Below are positions 1,942-33,561 of a DNA stretch of 43,214 nt, one piece after another. The stretch is from an uncultured Bacteroidota bacterium (lineage in GTDB: Bacteria; Bacteroidota; Bacteroidia; Bacteroidales; VadinHA17), in the NCBI GenBank assembly GCA_937864815.1, contig CALMJY010000275.1, positions 1 to 43,214 of the forward strand, written 5' to 3'. Position numbers and translations under genes: made by a program. The notes beneath the pieces are model-generated. The model saw only the letters and a program-made list of their open reading frames with translations, did no database searches and was not told the origin of the DNA. How positions within the stretch are numbered: the stretch's first letter is position 1; each line of letters starts with the position of its first letter.

Positions 1942-3099
1942 ATGGCAGATCGCAAAAAAGTATTTGTGAGCGGCTGTTTCGACCTGCTTCATTCAGGACA
2001 TGTTGCTTTTCTTAAAGAAGCATCACAATTTGGAGATGTTTATGTTGGATTAGGATCTGACAAGACAATTTATGACTTGAAGGGAAGAAAAACGATTAAC
2101 TCTGAGGATGAAAGGAAATACATGCTTGAAGCCCTGGCATGTGTTCACAGTGTTAAAATAAACTGCGGAAGTGGAATTCTTGATTTTCTGAATGATCTTA
2201 AGCTGCTGAAACCTGATATTTTTGTTGTAAATGAGGATGGGCATACACCTGATAAGGAAAAGCTATGCAAGGATATGGGAATGGATTATAAGGTCCTCAG
2301 GAGAATCCCATATGCCAATTTACCTGTTAGATCTACAACATCACTACGAAAGGAAAAGCCTATTCCATACAGGATTGATTTGGCAGGAACATGGATTGAT
2401 CAGCCTTATGTTTCAAAATTTCATCCCGGCTGGGCTATTACTGCTTCAATAGAACCAACAATTGAGTTCAATGAACGTTCTGGGATGGCAACTTCTACAC
2501 GAAAAAAAGCCATTGAATTATGGAATTATCAACTGCCAATGGAGGAACCCGAGAAACTGGCAAAAATTCTATTCAGATATGATAATGATCCCGGAACAAA
2601 AGATGTCAGCGGTTCTCAGGATTCGATAGGTATTGCAATGCCTGGGATTAACAGGTTTTATTATGAAAAAGGAGAGTATTGGCCATCAAAATTTGAAACA
2701 ATAACTGACCTTTCAACAATAAAATGGCTGGAAGACAGGCTTTATATGGTTATGCTATGGCCAAGACCGGATGATTTTGTGGTATTGGAGAATACAAACA
2801 TTACATCTGAAAATGTGATGAGTCTTACAGAAGCTGCTGATTTGACCTGGCATGGTTTGATCAAGCAGGATATTGAAATCTTTTCTAAAGGCTTCAGAGA
2901 ATCCTTTAATTCACAGGTCAGGATGTTCCCTAAAATGCTGAATGGGAAAATATCTCAGGTAATCGACCAGTATAAAGATATTGCAGGAGCATGGAAGCTA
3001 TCCGGGGCAGGAGGTGGAGGATATCTGATACTAATAAGTGAAAAGGAAATACCTAATTCAATAAGAGTCAAGATTCGGATAAAGGATTATTGGCTTTAA
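1942..3099 (+). CDS. Cytidylyltransferase-like / GHMP sugar kinase fusion
   Basis: This is a two-domain protein. Residues 1-135 are a nucleotidyltransferase of the cytidylyltransferase superfamily, with the HxGH signature HSGH at 17-20 and a PVRSTTSLR segment near 128-135. Residues 142-385 resemble a GHMP kinase of the HddA/fucokinase kind: RIDLAGTWID near 144-153, a GSQD motif at 224-227, and the C-terminal glycine-rich SGAGGGGY at 354-361. A kinase joined to a nucleotidyltransferase suggests that one protein phosphorylates a sugar and then activates it with a nucleotide, as HldE and Fkp do with other domain pairings. The substrate cannot be read from the sequence; a heptose or fucose-type sugar is possible. 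It follows the dehydratase by 35 bp and precedes the dead gmd by 15 bp, so they were probably one operon. The usual GHMP ATP-loop motif is not obvious. Confidence 0.8.
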   Translation: MADRKKVFVSGCFDLLHSGHVAFLKEASQFGDVYVGLGSDKTIYDLKGRKTINSEDERKYMLEALACVHSVKINCGSGILDFLNDLKLLKPDIFVVNEDGHTPDKEKLCKDMGMDYKVLRRIPYANLPVRSTTSLRKEKPIPYRIDLAGTWIDQPYVSKFHPGWAITASIEPTIEFNERSGMATSTRKKAIELWNYQLPMEEPEKLAKILFRYDNDPGTKDVSGSQDSIGIAMPGINRFYYEKGEYWPSKFETITDLSTIKWLEDRLYMVMLWPRPDDFVVLENTNITSENVMSLTEAADLTWHGLIKQDIEIFSKGFRESFNSQVRMFPKMLNGKISQVIDQYKDIAGAWKLSGAGGGGYLILISEKEIPNSIRVKIRIKDYWL

Positions 3100-11577: not shown

Positions 11578-12411
11578 ATGATGAATGATCAGTTTGATCT
11601 AATAATAGAACCTGGCAGAACGGGTAAAAATTACTGGCGTGACCTGTGGAGATTTAGGGAATTATTCTACATTTTATCATGGAGAGATATAAAAGTAAGA
11701 TATAAACAAACAGTAATAGGCGTAGCCTGGAGCATTATGCGACCATTACTGACAATGTTAATTTTTTCATTTGTCTTTGGGAAATTAGCGAAACTGCCAA
11801 GTGAAGGTGAAGCACCTTATTCCATTATGGTTTTTGCAGCATTATTACCCTGGCAGTTCTTTTCAAATTCCATTACTGAAAGCAGTAACAGCCTTATTGG
11901 AAATGCAAATTTGATCTCCAAAGTATATTTCCCGCGACTTATAATTCCTGCAAGTTCCGTAATCACAAGTTTTATTGATTTTATTATTTCATTTGTGATT
12001 ATGGTCTGTATAATGGTATATTATCGTTTTGTACCATCTTTAAATATTCTGTGGATACCTCTTTTTGTGATACTTTCTTTCCTGGCTTCCTTAGGTACGG
12101 GATTATGGTTAACAACCATGAACGTTAAATACAGGGATTTTCGTCACATTGTACCTTTTATAGTCCAGCTTGGATTGTACATATCTCCTGTTGGATTCAG
12201 CAGCAGTGTTGTACCTGATAAATGGAAGCTGTTATACTCACTTAATCCTTTGGTGGGTATTATTGACGGTTTCCGTTGGTGTATTTTAGGTGGTGGAAGT
12301 GATATCTATATACCGGGTTTAATTATTTCAGTTAGTGTAATCCTATTGATTGTAGTTTATTCTGTTTTCCACTTCAGGAAAATGGAAAAATCATTCGCAG
12401 ACATTATATAA
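11578..12411 (+). CDS. wzm: Polysaccharide ABC transporter permease (Wzm)
   Basis: This 277-residue ABC-2-type permease exports lipid-linked O-antigen or capsule across the inner membrane. It has a conserved amphipathic N-terminal region (LFYILSWRDIKVRYKQTVIGVAWSIMRP), then six hydrophobic segments at roughly 60-75, 80-97, 121-150, 157-183, 190-207 and 244-265. LLPWQFFSNSITESSNSL is typical of the LPS/teichoic-acid export family. Two successive ATG codons open the gene. The ATPase partner follows after 14 bp. With Wzt it forms the only complete export machine seen in the window. Confidence 0.93.
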   Translation: MMNDQFDLIIEPGRTGKNYWRDLWRFRELFYILSWRDIKVRYKQTVIGVAWSIMRPLLTMLIFSFVFGKLAKLPSEGEAPYSIMVFAALLPWQFFSNSITESSNSLIGNANLISKVYFPRLIIPASSVITSFIDFIISFVIMVCIMVYYRFVPSLNILWIPLFVILSFLASLGTGLWLTTMNVKYRDFRHIVPFIVQLGLYISPVGFSSSVVPDKWKLLYSLNPLVGIIDGFRWCILGGGSDIYIPGLIISVSVILLIVVYSVFHFRKMEKSFADII

Positions 12412-12425
12412 TCAGATTAATATAA

Positions 12426-13718
12426 ATGAATAAAGAAGTTATTAATATTGAAAATATCAGCAAATCATATCTGATAGGGCATGAAACTAAAGAGTCTTTT
12501 ATAACTTTCAGAGATGTTGTTGCAAAAACAGCTAGGCAGACTTTTCAAAAAACTAAGGGTTTGCTTAAAGGTGACCAACTGATTGCTGGAAATCAAATTG
12601 AGGAATTTTGGGCATTAAAGGATATATCTTTAAATGTAAATAAAGGAGAAAGATTAGGGATTATTGGTGGTAACGGTGCAGGTAAAAGTACATTACTGAA
12701 AATATTAAGCAGAATAACTGAACCAACAAAAGGCAGAGTAAAGATATCTGGCAGAATAGCCAGTCTCCTGGAGGTAGGCACTGGTTTTCATCCAGAATTG
12801 TCAGGAAGGGAAAATATATTTTTAAATGGGGCAATTCTTGGCATGAATCGCTTGGAAATTAAAAAAAAATTTGATGAAATTGTCGATTTCTCTGGAGTTG
12901 AAAAATTTCTTGATACACCAGTAAAAAGATATTCGAGCGGGATGTACGTGAGACTCGCTTTTGCTGTGGCTGCACATCTGGAGCCAGAAATCCTGCTTGT
13001 GGATGAAGTTCTAGCAGTAGGTGATGCAGAATTTCAAAAAAAATGTCTTGGTAAAATGCAGGATGTAAGTGAAGGTGGAAGAACAGTAATCTTTGTAAGC
13101 CATAATATGCAGGCATTAAGGCAGTTATGCACCAGGAGCATTTTACTGTCCGCAGGAAATCTGATTATGGATGATTTTACACCCAAAGTTATAGATAATT
13201 ATTTGCAGGCACATAGAAATGTATTCGAGAGTAAAAGCATGGATGAAATTATTAATTCGCTGCCTCCCGATCCAGTTTTTAGGTTCGTCGAAATAAAAAT
13301 AATCCAGGATAATCAGCCTGTTTATTCTGTTGTTGAAAATGGAAAGCCTCTGGAAATTGAGGTGAAATATCAGGTATTTAAAAAAACCAGTGGTCTTGAG
13401 GTATACTTCGATTTAATAGATGACCAGGGAGTGGTTCTTTTTAGATCTTTTCATGATGAAGATAATGATGGAATTCCTACTATGGAAGAGGGAGTATATG
13501 TTTCAATAGCAGAAATACCGGCTGATATTTTGGCCCCCATTAGTTACGAGCTGAAGATATTGGCTACAATTTATAATGTACGAACTTTTTATCCAAATGG
13601 TATTTCCATACCTTTGGACGTTGTTAGAACCGGTAAGACTAATCGTGCATATTTGTCTGAACCAATAATTGGTAAGCTGGCACCTTTTATTAAATGGGAT
13701 ACTCTGAAAATTAATTAA
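12426..13718 (+). CDS. wzt: Polysaccharide ABC transporter ATPase with carbohydrate-binding C-domain (Wzt)
   Basis: The nucleotide-binding domain (about 1-260) carries Walker A GGNGAGKST (81-89), signature YSSGM (169-173), Walker B ILLVDEVLAVGD (189-200) and the H-loop His in VSHN (224-227). Residues about 275-430 match the Wzt C-terminal beta-sandwich that binds the exported chain, with GKPLEIEVKYQVF and LEVYFDLIDDQGVVLF as its strands. In studied systems such a C-domain recognises a specific non-reducing terminal modification, such as a methyl or methyl-phosphate group. That makes the several methyltransferases in this locus candidates for the chain terminator. The length of 430 residues is normal for C-domain-bearing Wzt. 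Confidence 0.94.
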   Translation: MNKEVINIENISKSYLIGHETKESFITFRDVVAKTARQTFQKTKGLLKGDQLIAGNQIEEFWALKDISLNVNKGERLGIIGGNGAGKSTLLKILSRITEPTKGRVKISGRIASLLEVGTGFHPELSGRENIFLNGAILGMNRLEIKKKFDEIVDFSGVEKFLDTPVKRYSSGMYVRLAFAVAAHLEPEILLVDEVLAVGDAEFQKKCLGKMQDVSEGGRTVIFVSHNMQALRQLCTRSILLSAGNLIMDDFTPKVIDNYLQAHRNVFESKSMDEIINSLPPDPVFRFVEIKIIQDNQPVYSVVENGKPLEIEVKYQVFKKTSGLEVYFDLIDDQGVVLFRSFHDEDNDGIPTMEEGVYVSIAEIPADILAPISYELKILATIYNVRTFYPNGISIPLDVVRTGKTNRAYLSEPIIGKLAPFIKWDTLKIN

Positions 13719-29890: not shown

Positions 29891-29984
29891 CGATTCTACA
29901 ATTAAATTTTAGGCATCAAAAGCTGGCTCCCATATTTGAAATAGTAAGTACAAATTGATTCGAGTTGATTTAGAATTAAGGTTT

Positions 29985-30587
29985 ATGAAAAAGTTTCTGG
30001 TATTTAGTATTATTCTTTTGTCTTCTTTTACGATAATTAGAAAACATACTATATATTTTATTGGTGATTCATTAACAGTTGGCTATATAAAACCTTATCA
30101 AAGCTTTACGCCTTCTAATTATGTTATTGCAAACAAGGATAAAGTTAATTTGGGGATTGCTGGCTTGAAAATGACTGAATTAGATAGTATAATCGGCCCA
30201 AAATTATATAAAACAAGAAAGAAAGAGATTATGATAATCCAAATCGGTACAAATGATATTGGATCAGGAGGATTACCGCAAATTGAGTTCAATAGTTTAG
30301 AAACTTTTTGTAAGAAGTATAAGAAGAAAGGTTTAATAATTCTTGCTGCAACTTTGCCATCTGTAATTATTCAATATGGAGGTCAAGAAAGATTTATTTA
30401 ATATGACTTGATAAGAAATAATTATAGAGAATTTTCTGATGGATTAATTGATCTTGATATAGATGGAAGAATTGGGAAGTATAATTCTTGTCAAGAAACA
30501 TTATATTTCTCCGATGGATTCCATCTAACTGCAAATGGTTATTATGTAATTGCATCGATTATACAAAAGTCCCTAGATGATTTATAA
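29985..30587 (+). pseudogene. SGNH/GDSL hydrolase interrupted by one in-frame TAA
   Basis: One frame of 201 codons encodes an SGNH hydrolase with a signal peptide or anchor (KKFLVFSIILLSSFTII), block I GDSLTVGY, block III GTNDIG and block V DGFHLTANGYY. The frame is broken by TAA at 30399-30401, after QERFI, and continues without a shift to TAA at 30585. The upstream fragment alone lacks the Asp-His pair of the active site. The ATG at 29985 is preferred over an in-frame ATT further up, because it begins the signal sequence. The intact ancestor was probably a periplasmic esterase, for example a glycan O-deacetylase. It could also be a sequencing or assembly error, which read data would settle. 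Confidence 0.8.
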
Positions 30588-30654: not shown

Positions 30655-30798
30655 ATGGGATATCTGCTTTATATTGATCCTGGAACCGGAACATTACTGT
30701 TTCAAATGCTAATCGCCGGATTTGTAACCCTGATTGCATTTTCCAGAAAAGTTAAATTATTCATTGTTAATTTCTTTTCTCATTTTTTCAAAAAATGA
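30655..30798 (+). CDS. Small membrane protein (47 aa), IDPGTG-type
   Basis: A short ORF of 47 codons with an ATG start at 30655. The N-terminus MGYLLYIDPGTGTLLFQML is followed by a hydrophobic helix (IAGFVTLIAF), then a basic stretch and a second hydrophobic segment (LFIVNFFSHFFKK). The YIDPGTG motif recurs in small membrane proteins that I recall upstream of NoeA-like methyltransferase and sulfatase-like genes. Its stop overlaps the next start (ATGA at 30795), a sign of translational coupling. It may be a subunit or chaperone of the neighbouring membrane enzyme. The function is unknown. Confidence 0.75.
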   Translation: MGYLLYIDPGTGTLLFQMLIAGFVTLIAFSRKVKLFIVNFFSHFFKK

Positions 30799-32210
30799 AA
30801 CAAGCTTCCTTCAGGGATCCTGATGGTTTCCTTGTCAGCAAGGATGATAAGTTATTCAGGATTATCCTTACTGATTGGGAAAAGGAAATGAATCTACTGC
30901 AACCAGATTTTTTTGATTGCTTTGCCATTCCCTCTCATTATGATATTACATCAGAACTCTCTTCTGAACTATGTGATAAACTCAAGGAAAATGGATTAAA
31001 TAGCTCCAGAATTCTGAAAATTCTAGAGGTAGAAAAACTTGAACCGATTACATACCCCTGGGAATGGACTCCAACGATGCTTCTTGAAGCAGGTTGTTTC
31101 ACAATATATACGCAACTGAAACTGATGGAATCAGGTCTAACTCTAAAAGATGCTTCTTTTTTTAATATACAATTTCAGAATAACAAAATCTTTTTTTTAG
31201 ATCTGTTATCTGTTAAAAGAGCAGTTGGATTCTATCCATGGGTTCCATACGGTCAGTTTCTCAGACATTTTGTTTACCCTGCAACACTCATTAAATATAA
31301 TATAATTACTAATCTTAAATCATTATGGAGTAACCTAGATGGATTCACTCTTGAATATCAAATAAGTCTGTTACCATTAAAAATTATTCTGAATTTGTAT
31401 GAACTAATTCATTATAAAATCGGAGGTAGGGTAAAAAGTGAATCTTATACAAATGACAGACCTGAAACAGGAAATAAAAACTCAAAACAAAAATTACAGA
31501 ATCTGCTTGAATGGAACTTAACCTATCTACAATCTATTCGGAAGAGAATTGCTAGCCGGAATAGCTTTTGGTCAGGATATTATGATAGAGATGTTGATCT
31601 TGCTTATTTTACTGAAAAGCGAAAAGCATTAACTGAAATTTTAAAGGATATTGATGAAAAAATAAGAGTTCTTGATATAGGATCAAATATTGGAGAATAT
31701 TCTTCTGTCTTTCTAGAATTTTTAGATGAAATAATCTGTCTGGAAAAAGACATAGTTTGTTGCGAGCATTTATATTCCACTTTGTCAGCGACATATCCTT
31801 TTGGGTCGGGAAAAAAATGGGCAATAGTTAATTCGGATATTGTAAATCCTGATCCCGGTCTTGGATGGATGAATACAGAAAGAAAATCGTTGATCGAAAG
31901 AATAAGATCGGATTTAGTTTCTGCTCTTGGAATTATACACCATTTATACTTCACAGAAAGCATAGATTTACATCAGCAATCAAAGCTGTTCTGTAACCTC
32001 TCAAAGGAGCTTTTTATAACAGAATTTATCTCATCTGATGATGAAAAGGTAAAAATAGTGGCCCATACTAATCCAACAAGACTGAAATATTATGATAGGA
32101 ATTACTTTCTAGGTGCATTCTCAGATAATTTCAAGGTATTGAAGAATATTAAAATTAATGAAACTCGTGAATTATTTCTCTTTTCTAAAAGAACTGGCTT
32201 TGAATCCTGA
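30795..32210 (+). CDS. NoeA-like SAM methyltransferase with kinase-like N-terminal half
   Basis: A 471-residue protein. The C-terminal half is a class I methyltransferase: RVLDIGSNIGEYSSVF (291-306) is motif I, CLEKDI is motif II, and a long acceptor region follows. The N-terminal half has a family-specific FRDPDGF opening, WEWTPTMLLEAG (89-100), and LKDASFFNIQFQNNKIFFLD (117-136). This last block has the spacing of the protein-kinase catalytic triad (Asp119, then Asn124, then Asp136, compare HRDxxxxN and DFG). The glycine-rich loop and Lys of true kinases are not obvious. Some relatives are annotated as nodulation protein NoeA. A kinase-methyltransferase similar in logic to WbdD is a hypothesis. 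It is coupled to its neighbours by a 4 bp overlap upstream and a 53 bp overlap downstream. Confidence 0.7.
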   Translation: MKQASFRDPDGFLVSKDDKLFRIILTDWEKEMNLLQPDFFDCFAIPSHYDITSELSSELCDKLKENGLNSSRILKILEVEKLEPITYPWEWTPTMLLEAGCFTIYTQLKLMESGLTLKDASFFNIQFQNNKIFFLDLLSVKRAVGFYPWVPYGQFLRHFVYPATLIKYNIITNLKSLWSNLDGFTLEYQISLLPLKIILNLYELIHYKIGGRVKSESYTNDRPETGNKNSKQKLQNLLEWNLTYLQSIRKRIASRNSFWSGYYDRDVDLAYFTEKRKALTEILKDIDEKIRVLDIGSNIGEYSSVFLEFLDEIICLEKDIVCCEHLYSTLSATYPFGSGKKWAIVNSDIVNPDPGLGWMNTERKSLIERIRSDLVSALGIIHHLYFTESIDLHQQSKLFCNLSKELFITEFISSDDEKVKIVAHTNPTRLKYYDRNYFLGAFSDNFKVLKNIKINETRELFLFSKRTGFES

Positions 32211-33561
32211 AAAATCATTACGAATTCATTTTTCATTAATTCTGGTCTATACTTCATATTGTTCGATCTATTATTTAAATCATCATGCAGATTTTGAAAT
32301 ACTTTTTACTTTATCCGGAATTAAATTGTTCTGCTTTATTCTCGGGTTTCAGTTTCTGGCTACATTGCTGTTAAACACCTTCCAGTCCAACAAAACAAAA
32401 GCTGGATATCTTTTTATAGTTTTCAGTTCATTTTTGTTACTTAACCTTGCTGGTTTTCTGGTATATGCTACAGAATTCCTTAACAAATACCTGACATTTT
32501 ATCTGAGAATCAGGGATTTGCTTATAGCCTTTCTATTGGTTTTGGCATTTCTTTCTTTTATATTGAAGTCAAAGTTCGATAATACAATTAGGATTTTTAA
32601 TACATTTCTTGCAGTTTTGATTATAGGTAACATAGGCAGAGTGACTATTTCAGGAAGAATCGTTACTGAAAAAGGTCCCTTAAGGGATAATGAAAATGAA
32701 ACTACTAGGATCCCTTATTCGGATGACGGCGTAAATAAATACGCAAAACAAAACATTTTGTTAATTCTTCTTGATGAATATAGCTCATGGGACGAGTTGG
32801 AAAACTATCAGGAAAGTAATGAAGAACCTAACGATTTAAGAAATTTTCTTGATTCTGCTGGATTCACTGTAAAAACATCACATACATTGAAAAACTCTAC
32901 AATCAATTCATTGAATATGATCTTTAACAGGAATTCTAATCTGTCGTTTAGAGATGAATCTCATGAAAATGCATCAAAGGAACTCAAAGAATCAGCAGTA
33001 ATAAACAGTCTTCACGAAAAGGGTTATAAATTCAAAAATTTCAGCTTTTTTAATATTGGGAATCATGAATCATTTTACAGTTGGCAAGGTCCATATAGCT
33101 ATAATGAATTTGAACTTTTACTCAGCTTGTCAATATATCCTATGGTCTTGTCAAGTCTGAAAGAAGACTCAGCATCCAATGCAGGATATAACAGGGAAGT
33201 GGAAAAACAGTCTCTGGAGTATTTAAAAAACCTAGGGCCAAATGAGAATATTTTTGTTTATGTTCATTTCCTCTTTCCGCATGGTCCTTTTTACCTTGAA
33301 AATGAGTTTTCGTATTTAGAAAGGAATCTTGACAATTACATAACTTTCTGGAATTTCTGTAACAAAAAAATAGTGAATTATCTTAAATCTGTGCCAGACC
33401 TTAATACTTATAAGATTATTATAACTGGAGATCACGGATTTAGGTCTGACAGACGGATTGATCCTTCTTATACAATTACTGCATTTTACAATTTTGATAA
33501 TGATGAGATTGAAAGAATATCGACAGTACAAGATATTGGAAGTTTGCTTCTTTCCCAGTAA
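32158..33561 (+). CDS. Membrane alkaline-phosphatase-superfamily (sulfatase-like) transferase
   Basis: A 467-residue protein. About five membrane helices occupy residues 25-165, followed by a periplasmic catalytic domain of the sulfatase/alkaline phosphatase superfamily. ILLILLDEYSSWDEL (200-214) gives the first metal Asp206, TLKNSTINSLN (243-253) holds the likely Ser/Thr nucleophile, HFLFPHGPFY (370-379) and GDHGFRSD (424-431) give further metal ligands. This layout resembles phosphoglycerol and phosphoethanolamine transferases (LtaS, OpgB, EptA), which move a phospho-alcohol from a phospholipid to a glycan. The exact group is unknown. The start overlaps the NoeA-like gene by 53 bp, an unusually long overlap that indicates co-translation. 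Confidence 0.83.
   Translation: MKLVNYFSFLKELALNPEKSLRIHFSLILVYTSYCSIYYLNHHADFEILFTLSGIKLFCFILGFQFLATLLLNTFQSNKTKAGYLFIVFSSFLLLNLAGFLVYATEFLNKYLTFYLRIRDLLIAFLLVLAFLSFILKSKFDNTIRIFNTFLAVLIIGNIGRVTISGRIVTEKGPLRDNENETTRIPYSDDGVNKYAKQNILLILLDEYSSWDELENYQESNEEPNDLRNFLDSAGFTVKTSHTLKNSTINSLNMIFNRNSNLSFRDESHENASKELKESAVINSLHEKGYKFKNFSFFNIGNHESFYSWQGPYSYNEFELLLSLSIYPMVLSSLKEDSASNAGYNREVEKQSLEYLKNLGPNENIFVYVHFLFPHGPFYLENEFSYLERNLDNYITFWNFCNKKIVNYLKSVPDLNTYKIIITGDHGFRSDRRIDPSYTITAFYNFDNDEIERISTVQDIGSLLLSQ

What the first reader, a model, noticed from the sequence alone, without database searches (positions are those of the whole stretch)
30655..33561. Coupled trio: 47-aa membrane peptide, NoeA-like methyltransferase, membrane phospho-transferase-like enzyme
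The three genes overlap by 4 bp and 53 bp, so they are likely made as a unit. The peptide (YIDPGTG motif) is too short for most gene finders. The third protein has the layout of LtaS/EptA-type enzymes that add phospho-alcohols to glycans from the periplasmic side. Together they could be a decoration or chain-capping module, with the peptide as an accessory subunit. I know of no described function for this combination.
Basis: partly seen in the sequence, partly recalled or inferred. Interest (0 to 1): 0.75.

Follow-up and report, generated by a model that had tools for sequence, protein, structure and literature searches.

The report
Envelope phospho-decoration operon with tiny membrane protein
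Three overlapping genes - a tiny membrane protein, a fused kinase-methyltransferase and a membrane phosphotransferase-like enzyme - form a unit seen in many bacterial phyla and in a rhizobial nodulation operon, and they probably decorate cell-surface molecules with a capped phosphate group.

Summary
The trio is real at the stated coordinates. The "methyltransferase" is a NoeA-type kinase-methyltransferase; R22/D119/N124/D136 are invariant in 62 of 62 rows. The third protein is an alkaline-phosphatase-fold (AlkP) membrane enzyme, as NoeB is. The same trio forms the rhizobial nodL-[71 aa]-noeA-noeB operon. A 2022 paper already describes NoeA as kinase-methyltransferase with conserved neighbours, so the enzyme pair is not new.

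New here: the peptide family (YxDPG[TS]GS...Q) is NoeA's near-constant partner. It lies just upstream in 75 of 81 loci and elsewhere in the locus in 5 more. It is under purifying selection.

In one Bacteroidota family 43 genomes have the peptide: 40 with NoeA beside it. The other 3 lack a NoeA match and have a CDP-glycerol-phosphotransferase-like gene there. In the 2 readable ones it heads a phosphonate cassette, followed by a retained AlkP gene.

Best reading: NoeA loads a capped phosphoryl group (such as methylphosphate) in the cytosol and AlkP acts outside. Chemistry, acceptor and the peptide's job are inferred.

The parts
30655..30798 (+). 47-aa membrane microprotein MGYLLYIDPGTGTLLFQ...; motif YIDPGTG at 30670-30690; short leader without a cleavable signal in this copy
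   Evidence: one hydrophobic segment at residues 11-29, 5 K/R and no D/E after residue 26
30795..32210 (+). NoeA-family kinase-methyltransferase, 471 aa
30795..31454 (+). kinase-like half of NoeA (about residues 1-220; R22, D119, N124, D136)
   Evidence: invariant residues; kinase assignment from PMC9758233 passages; kinase fold not confirmed by the fold search rows shown
31548..32210 (+). class I methyltransferase half of NoeA (about residues 252-471)
   Evidence: profile match to WbdD methyltransferase 1.4e-5
32158..33561 (+). AlkP-superfamily membrane enzyme (NoeB position), 467 aa
   Evidence: Pfam Sulfatase 2.5e-10
32899..32901 (+). codon of Thr248, presumed nucleophile
   Evidence: invariant in 38 of 38 rows; role inferred from the superfamily (recalled)
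33430..33435 (+). Asp425-His426, presumed metal ligands
   Evidence: 38 and 33 of 38 rows; role recalled

Best explanation
The trio is a NoeA-NoeB-type envelope-decoration module with its own microprotein. Shown: gene identities, conservation, coupling, selection on the peptide, intact candidate catalytic residues, and occupation of the NoeA place by a phosphonate cassette in a few relatives. Inferred: on the cytosolic side NoeA phosphorylates a membrane-associated acceptor (sugar or lipid-linked sugar) and methylates that phosphate, as WbdD does, giving a capped methylphosphate group. The microprotein, predicted with its YxDPGTGS end outside and basic tail inside, holds the loading enzyme at the membrane beside the acceptor. 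Where an AlkP protein is encoded it acts on the outer side through Thr248, moving or trimming the capped group. A methylphosphodiester and a phosphonate monoester are alike in shape and charge, so one AlkP could serve either loading enzyme.
For: R22/D119/N124/D136 invariant in 62 of 62 NoeA rows. WbdD, which phosphorylates and then methylates, is the best solved-structure profile match, over the methyltransferase half only, and rank 7 in Foldseek. Peptide just upstream in 75 of 81 loci, 5 more elsewhere in the locus. Of 43 peptide-bearing genomes in one family, 40 have NoeA beside it; the 3 without are the only 3 of 147 with the PF04464 gene, each beside the peptide. G378 and G337 keep an AlkP gene after a phosphonate cassette, and these AlkPs fall among NoeA-linked ones. 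The flanking-gene tree needs at least two changes. AlkP model resembles EptA/LtaS.
Against: No chemistry tested. No kinase structure among the 50 Foldseek rows shown. Half the loci lack an AlkP directly downstream by my profile (36 of 72 have it; 3 more by Pfam). The exchange rests on 3 genomes, one a 60%-complete genome whose contig ends inside the cassette, and the cassette is inverted relative to the peptide. The top AlkP fold match is PbgA/YejM, known as a regulator rather than an enzyme (recalled). The AlkP model is only moderate (pLDDT 73). One orphan peptide with neither partner exists (G346).
Confidence: 0.42

Rival explanations
1. WbdD-like chain terminator: NoeA caps the non-reducing end of an ABC-exported polysaccharide with methylphosphate; peptide and AlkP are separate functions.
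For: The window has an ABC exporter pair at 11578-13718 and many glycosyltransferases; WbdD is the nearest solved methyltransferase.
Against: In the G292 family the unit sits beside an M42 peptidase in 32 of 40 NoeA loci (counted from the table), not in an evident polysaccharide cluster; the peptide is near-constant; domain order is reversed against WbdD (its methyltransferase lies at residues 37-179).
Confidence: 0.2
2. The peptide is a subunit of the AlkP transferase, and NoeA prepares the donor.
For: Peptide and AlkP are both kept when NoeA is replaced (2 of the 3 sites, the third unreadable); order peptide-AlkP-NoeA in L015, L058, L074.
Against: 31 of 68 loci with room have the peptide but no AlkP directly downstream, 1 the reverse; AlkP could lie elsewhere in those genomes, which was not searched.
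Confidence: 0.2
3. Regulatory unit: NoeA modifies proteins and the AlkP-fold protein is a PbgA-like sensor.
For: Top fold match of AlkP is PbgA/YejM, E 1.3e-6; kinase-like domain.
Against: T248, H375, D425 invariant in 38 of 38, unexpected for a dead enzyme; exchange with a phosphonate cassette.
Confidence: 0.08
4. The NoeA/phosphonate exchange is a hotspot accident without functional meaning; peptide and AlkP there are leftovers.
For: Cassette inverted and convergent with the peptide gene; only 3 cases; AlkP number varies at the spot.
Against: The PF04464 gene occurs in 3 of 147 genomes, only where NoeA is unmatched and only beside the peptide; 57% and 39% identity to the G378 copy; at least two changes on the tree; peptide and AlkP remain intact open frames.
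Confidence: 0.3

Closest known systems
nodL-noeA-noeB operon of Sinorhizobium/Rhizobium (Ardourel 1995, seen only as cited in papers read in passages)
   Same: Peptide, NoeA and AlkP protein in the same order; 71-aa YLDPGTGS peptide annotated 'hypothetical protein'
   Different: No nodL and no nodulation context in the window; peptide there has a signal-like leader; window AlkP is 17-18% identical to the rhizobial ones
Lani_1194 kinase-methyltransferase family (PMC9758233, passages)
   Same: Kinase-like half plus methyltransferase; conserved neighbours, one with the alkaline phosphatase fold
   Different: The passages read do not describe the peptide or the phosphonate exchange; identity of Lani_1193 not checked
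WbdD (E. coli O9a; paper PMC3482155 seen in search listing only)
   Same: Kinase and methyltransferase in one protein; methyltransferase halves related by profile
   Different: Reversed domain order; no peptide or AlkP partner known to me (recalled)
EptA / LtaS / LtaP membrane phosphotransferases
   Same: AlkP fold with membrane N-terminal part
   Different: Low TM-scores (about 0.3-0.5) and 9-19% identity in the rows shown; substrate unknown
DltX microprotein (PMC12148441, passages)
   Same: Small membrane protein with an invariant Tyr in a short motif on the outer side, encoded with loading and transfer enzymes
   Different: Motif at the N-terminal end and unrelated (YxDPGTGS against FXYXXF); no MBOAT partner seen

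Membership tests
NoeA / Lani_1194 kinase-methyltransferase | Kinase-like catalytic residues (Arg for Lys, catalytic Asp, Asn, second Asp) | tested here: met
   R22, D119, N124, D136 in 62 of 62 rows including the window; assignment follows PMC9758233 passages
NoeA / Lani_1194 kinase-methyltransferase | Kinase fold of the N-terminal half | tested here: inconclusive
   Confident model (pLDDT 89.8) but only methyltransferases in the 50 Foldseek rows shown
NoeA / Lani_1194 kinase-methyltransferase | C-terminal class I methyltransferase | tested here: met
AlkP superfamily phosphotransferase (EptA/LtaS type) | AlkP fold with conserved Thr and metal ligands | tested here: met
   residue roles recalled
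AlkP superfamily phosphotransferase (EptA/LtaS type) | Five-helix membrane domain | tested here: inconclusive
   Four hydrophobic segments by a simple scan; model weak there
AlkP superfamily phosphotransferase (EptA/LtaS type) | Phospho-alcohol transfer activity | not testable with these tools
   needs an assay
WbdD | N-terminal methyltransferase followed by kinase | tested here: not met
   Order reversed: WbdD methyltransferase at residues 37-179, here profile positions 252-405
DltX | C-terminal FXYXXF motif on the outer side | tested here: not met
   Peptide motif is N-terminal YxDPGTGS
noeA-noeB nodulation operon | Peptide-noeA-noeB gene order | tested here: met
noeA-noeB nodulation operon | Role in nodulation | not testable with these tools
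   The window organism has no named host and nodulation cannot be tested

The most novel reading that the evidence does not exclude
The YxDPGTGS microprotein is a DltX-like carrier: its outer Tyr (or Thr/Ser) transiently holds a capped phosphoryl group - methylphosphate made by NoeA or a phosphonate made by the stand-in cassette - and hands it to the AlkP transferase, a phosphoryl counterpart of the acyl-shuttle systems. It would make the 71-aa ORF a working fourth gene of the nodL-noeA-noeB operon.
Probability: 0.1. Interest if true: 0.9.

Novelty: new variant of a known kind. Interest (0 to 1): 0.6.

Why it matters
noeA and noeB are long known as host-range genes of rhizobia, and the passages read give no reaction for them. 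Tying them to a near-constant microprotein present in many phyla, and to an exchange with a phosphonate-transfer cassette, gives a concrete testable chemistry (capped phosphoryl decoration) and points to a small gene annotated only as hypothetical in the two nodulation operons looked at.

Tried and rejected
A single-sequence scan of genome contigs with the window NoeA found no relative; a profile did. The window AlkP alone finds only itself and one other genome of 296, as this protein diverges fast. The kinase half was not confirmed by fold. Co-folding of peptide with enzymes was not possible with single-chain prediction. No DNA match to the trio in the plasmid collection. Considered and set aside: the peptide as partner of AlkP alone (one search counts), and a classical sulfatase (fold matches lead with PbgA, EptA, LtaP, LtaS, and Thr248 is invariant; but sulfatases also appear and no search for the sulfatase signature was made).

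Rows dropped before counts: the G331 peptide hit (E 8.3e-4 in a 662-aa frame) from the 43 peptide genomes; 4 of 85 loci from the upstream count and 13 of 85 from the downstream count for lack of room. In the table the peptide is hidden in five rows (L013, L020, L196, L197, L198) by my overlap filter, although searches find it there.

Full report
Observation. The window is one whole contig (C275) of a 4.66-Mb genome in 348 contigs. Around the trio lies a polysaccharide cluster with glycosyltransferases, sugar-nucleotide enzymes and an ABC exporter pair at 11578-13718. In the window's order only 4 of 119 genomes, its own included, have a NoeA match, and the one listed same-genus genome (G544) has none, which suggests horizontal gain.

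The middle protein. Pfam alone sees a weak methyltransferase. A 2022 survey (PMC9758233, passages only) recognised the kinase-like domain of this family, with Arg for the usual Lys. In my 62 rows R22, D119, N124 and D136 are invariant. The model is confident (pLDDT 89.8, pTM 0.90). Of 50 Foldseek rows shown the best are methyltransferases, with WbdD at rank 7; the profile's best solved match is WbdD over the methyltransferase half (1.4e-5). The kinase fold was therefore not confirmed here by structure.

The third protein. Pfam Sulfatase 2.5e-10; model moderate (pLDDT 73, pTM 0.69); best matches PbgA/YejM, EptA, LtaP, LtaS, with sulfatases further down. T248, H375 and D425 are invariant in 38 of 38 rows, H370 and D206 in 37, H426 in 33. 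The window copy is divergent (12-23% identity to the other rows).

The peptide. The window peptide as a single query hit 8 of 296 genomes, its own included, all beside NoeA. The 44-row profile hit 9 of 296; as all 9 are rows of that profile, only the absence of others is new information. The two NoeA-hit genomes without a peptide are a divergent copy (G222) and a short match in a 2,295-aa frame (G109). In 81 loci with room upstream (from the 80 best genome hits and 5 plasmid loci) 75 have the peptide directly upstream, and 5 of the other 6 have it elsewhere in the locus; L093 has none seen. The peptide profile used was built from peptides of these loci, and the loci are the closest relatives of one query, so the fraction may fall among remote ones. 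PMC9758233 gives 65% and 38% for two neighbours in 816 neighbourhoods; whether Lani_1193 is this peptide I did not test.

Motif and topology. In 89 aligned peptides Tyr1, Asp3, Pro4 and Gln12 are constant, Gly7 88, Ser8 87; Asp and Pro were fixed by the selection pattern, Tyr was one of five allowed letters, Gln was free. Three further peptides break the pattern (YVDWGSAS, YIGAGTGS, YLDGGSGS) but keep Tyr and Gln. Of 90 peptides, 52 have a hydrophobic leader and an AxA-type site just before Tyr, 19 have leaders under 15 residues, 19 fit neither; 89 of 90 carry three or more Lys/Arg behind the membrane segment. The window's own copy has a five-residue leader and Thr in place of Ser8. This favours outside N-terminus and inside tail (positive-inside rule, recalled). 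Selection: pooled pN 0.10, pS 0.66 over 10 pairs; five give finite dN/dS of 0.02-0.10, five are saturated.

The nodulation operon. In Ensifer canadensis T173 and Rhizobium sp. T1470 the order is nodL, a 71-aa 'hypothetical protein', noeA (unnamed in the second), 'sulfatase-like hydrolase/transferase' (gene name noeB in the first). The 71-aa proteins read ...PAHAYLDPGTGSMLVQ.... [quoted passage not shown] truncatula genotypes.

Partner of the peptide. Of 68 loci with room on both sides, 32 have peptide and AlkP directly downstream, 31 peptide only, 1 AlkP only, 4 neither. AlkP is undercounted: Pfam finds Sulfatase in L085, L103 and L057, not in L046. In the family of G292 (147 genomes) 43 genomes have the peptide and 42 a NoeA match; 40 have both, same contig and strand, 38 within 93 bases, the others 488 and 1694. 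Three of those genomes contributed rows to the peptide profile. NoeA-only: G306 (partial gene) and G320 (fragment with stops). Peptide-only: G378, G337, G428. G346 has a second, orphan peptide.

The exchange. Counting the table by eye, 32 of 40 NoeA loci have the M42 peptidase upstream and 31 of 40 an AlkP directly downstream on the same strand. In G378 (100% complete, no NoeA match) the place of NoeA holds an inverted cassette: PF04464 CDP-glycerol-phosphotransferase-like gene, Fe-alcohol dehydrogenase, phosphonopyruvate decarboxylase (TIGR03297, 9e-124) and PEP mutase (TIGR02320, 2.3e-119) fused to a cytidylyltransferase domain, then AlkP and bioB. G337 (83% complete) has the matching genes plus a TylF-type methyltransferase, then AlkP. 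G428 (60% complete) shows the peptide and a PF04464 fragment (1.8e-4, just under Pfam's cut-off; 39% identity to the G378 gene) before its contig ends. The PF04464 gene occurs in 3 of 147 genomes, exactly these. The M42 tree needs at least two changes, G428 pairing with NoeA-bearing G348 of its genus. The AlkPs of G378 and G337 fall at different places among NoeA-linked AlkPs. A PEP mutase with an N-terminally fused cytidylyltransferase is the Fom1 architecture, which makes CMP-hydroxyethylphosphonate (PMC6697681, passages); that this cassette makes it too is inference.

Mechanism. The simplest account is that NoeA and the cassette do equivalent jobs, placing a capped phosphoryl group on a membrane-side acceptor, with peptide and, where present, AlkP as common machinery. 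Anatomy, conservation and exchange are shown; chemistry, acceptor, topology and the AlkP reaction are inferred. The boldest version, a Tyr-based phosphoryl carrier like DltX (PMC12148441, passages), is not excluded but has a difficulty: the kinase should be cytosolic and the motif outside.

Novelty. No paper in the library holds both 'noeA' and 'phosphonate'; 'DPGTGS' occurs in one unrelated paper; 'noeA' with 'kinase domain' and 'methyltransferase' from 2022 gives only PMC9758233. Supplements and most subscription papers could not be searched. Hence new variant of a known kind.

Noticed in passing
L233 2582-5533; L234 3832-5305: Two IMG/VR viral contigs carry the module: L233 peptide, NoeA and a 504-aa protein resembling the AlkP; L234 peptide and NoeA, with no AlkP in the stretch held.
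   Followed up: partly
L191, L192, L193, L196, L200, L206, L213, L222: Two or three AlkP genes in a row follow NoeA.
   Followed up: no
L185 2335-2487 (G346 C135): A second peptide in one genome without NoeA, AlkP or the phosphonate genes in the stretches read, at the edge of what looks like a polysaccharide cluster.
   Followed up: partly
window 29955-30587: An SGNH/GDSL-type hydrolase just before the trio looks split into two in-frame pieces by a stop codon; Pfam covers only the first part of the domain.
   Followed up: no
window 1942-3099: 385-aa protein with an N-terminal cytidylyltransferase-like domain and no other Pfam match at 1e-8.
   Followed up: no
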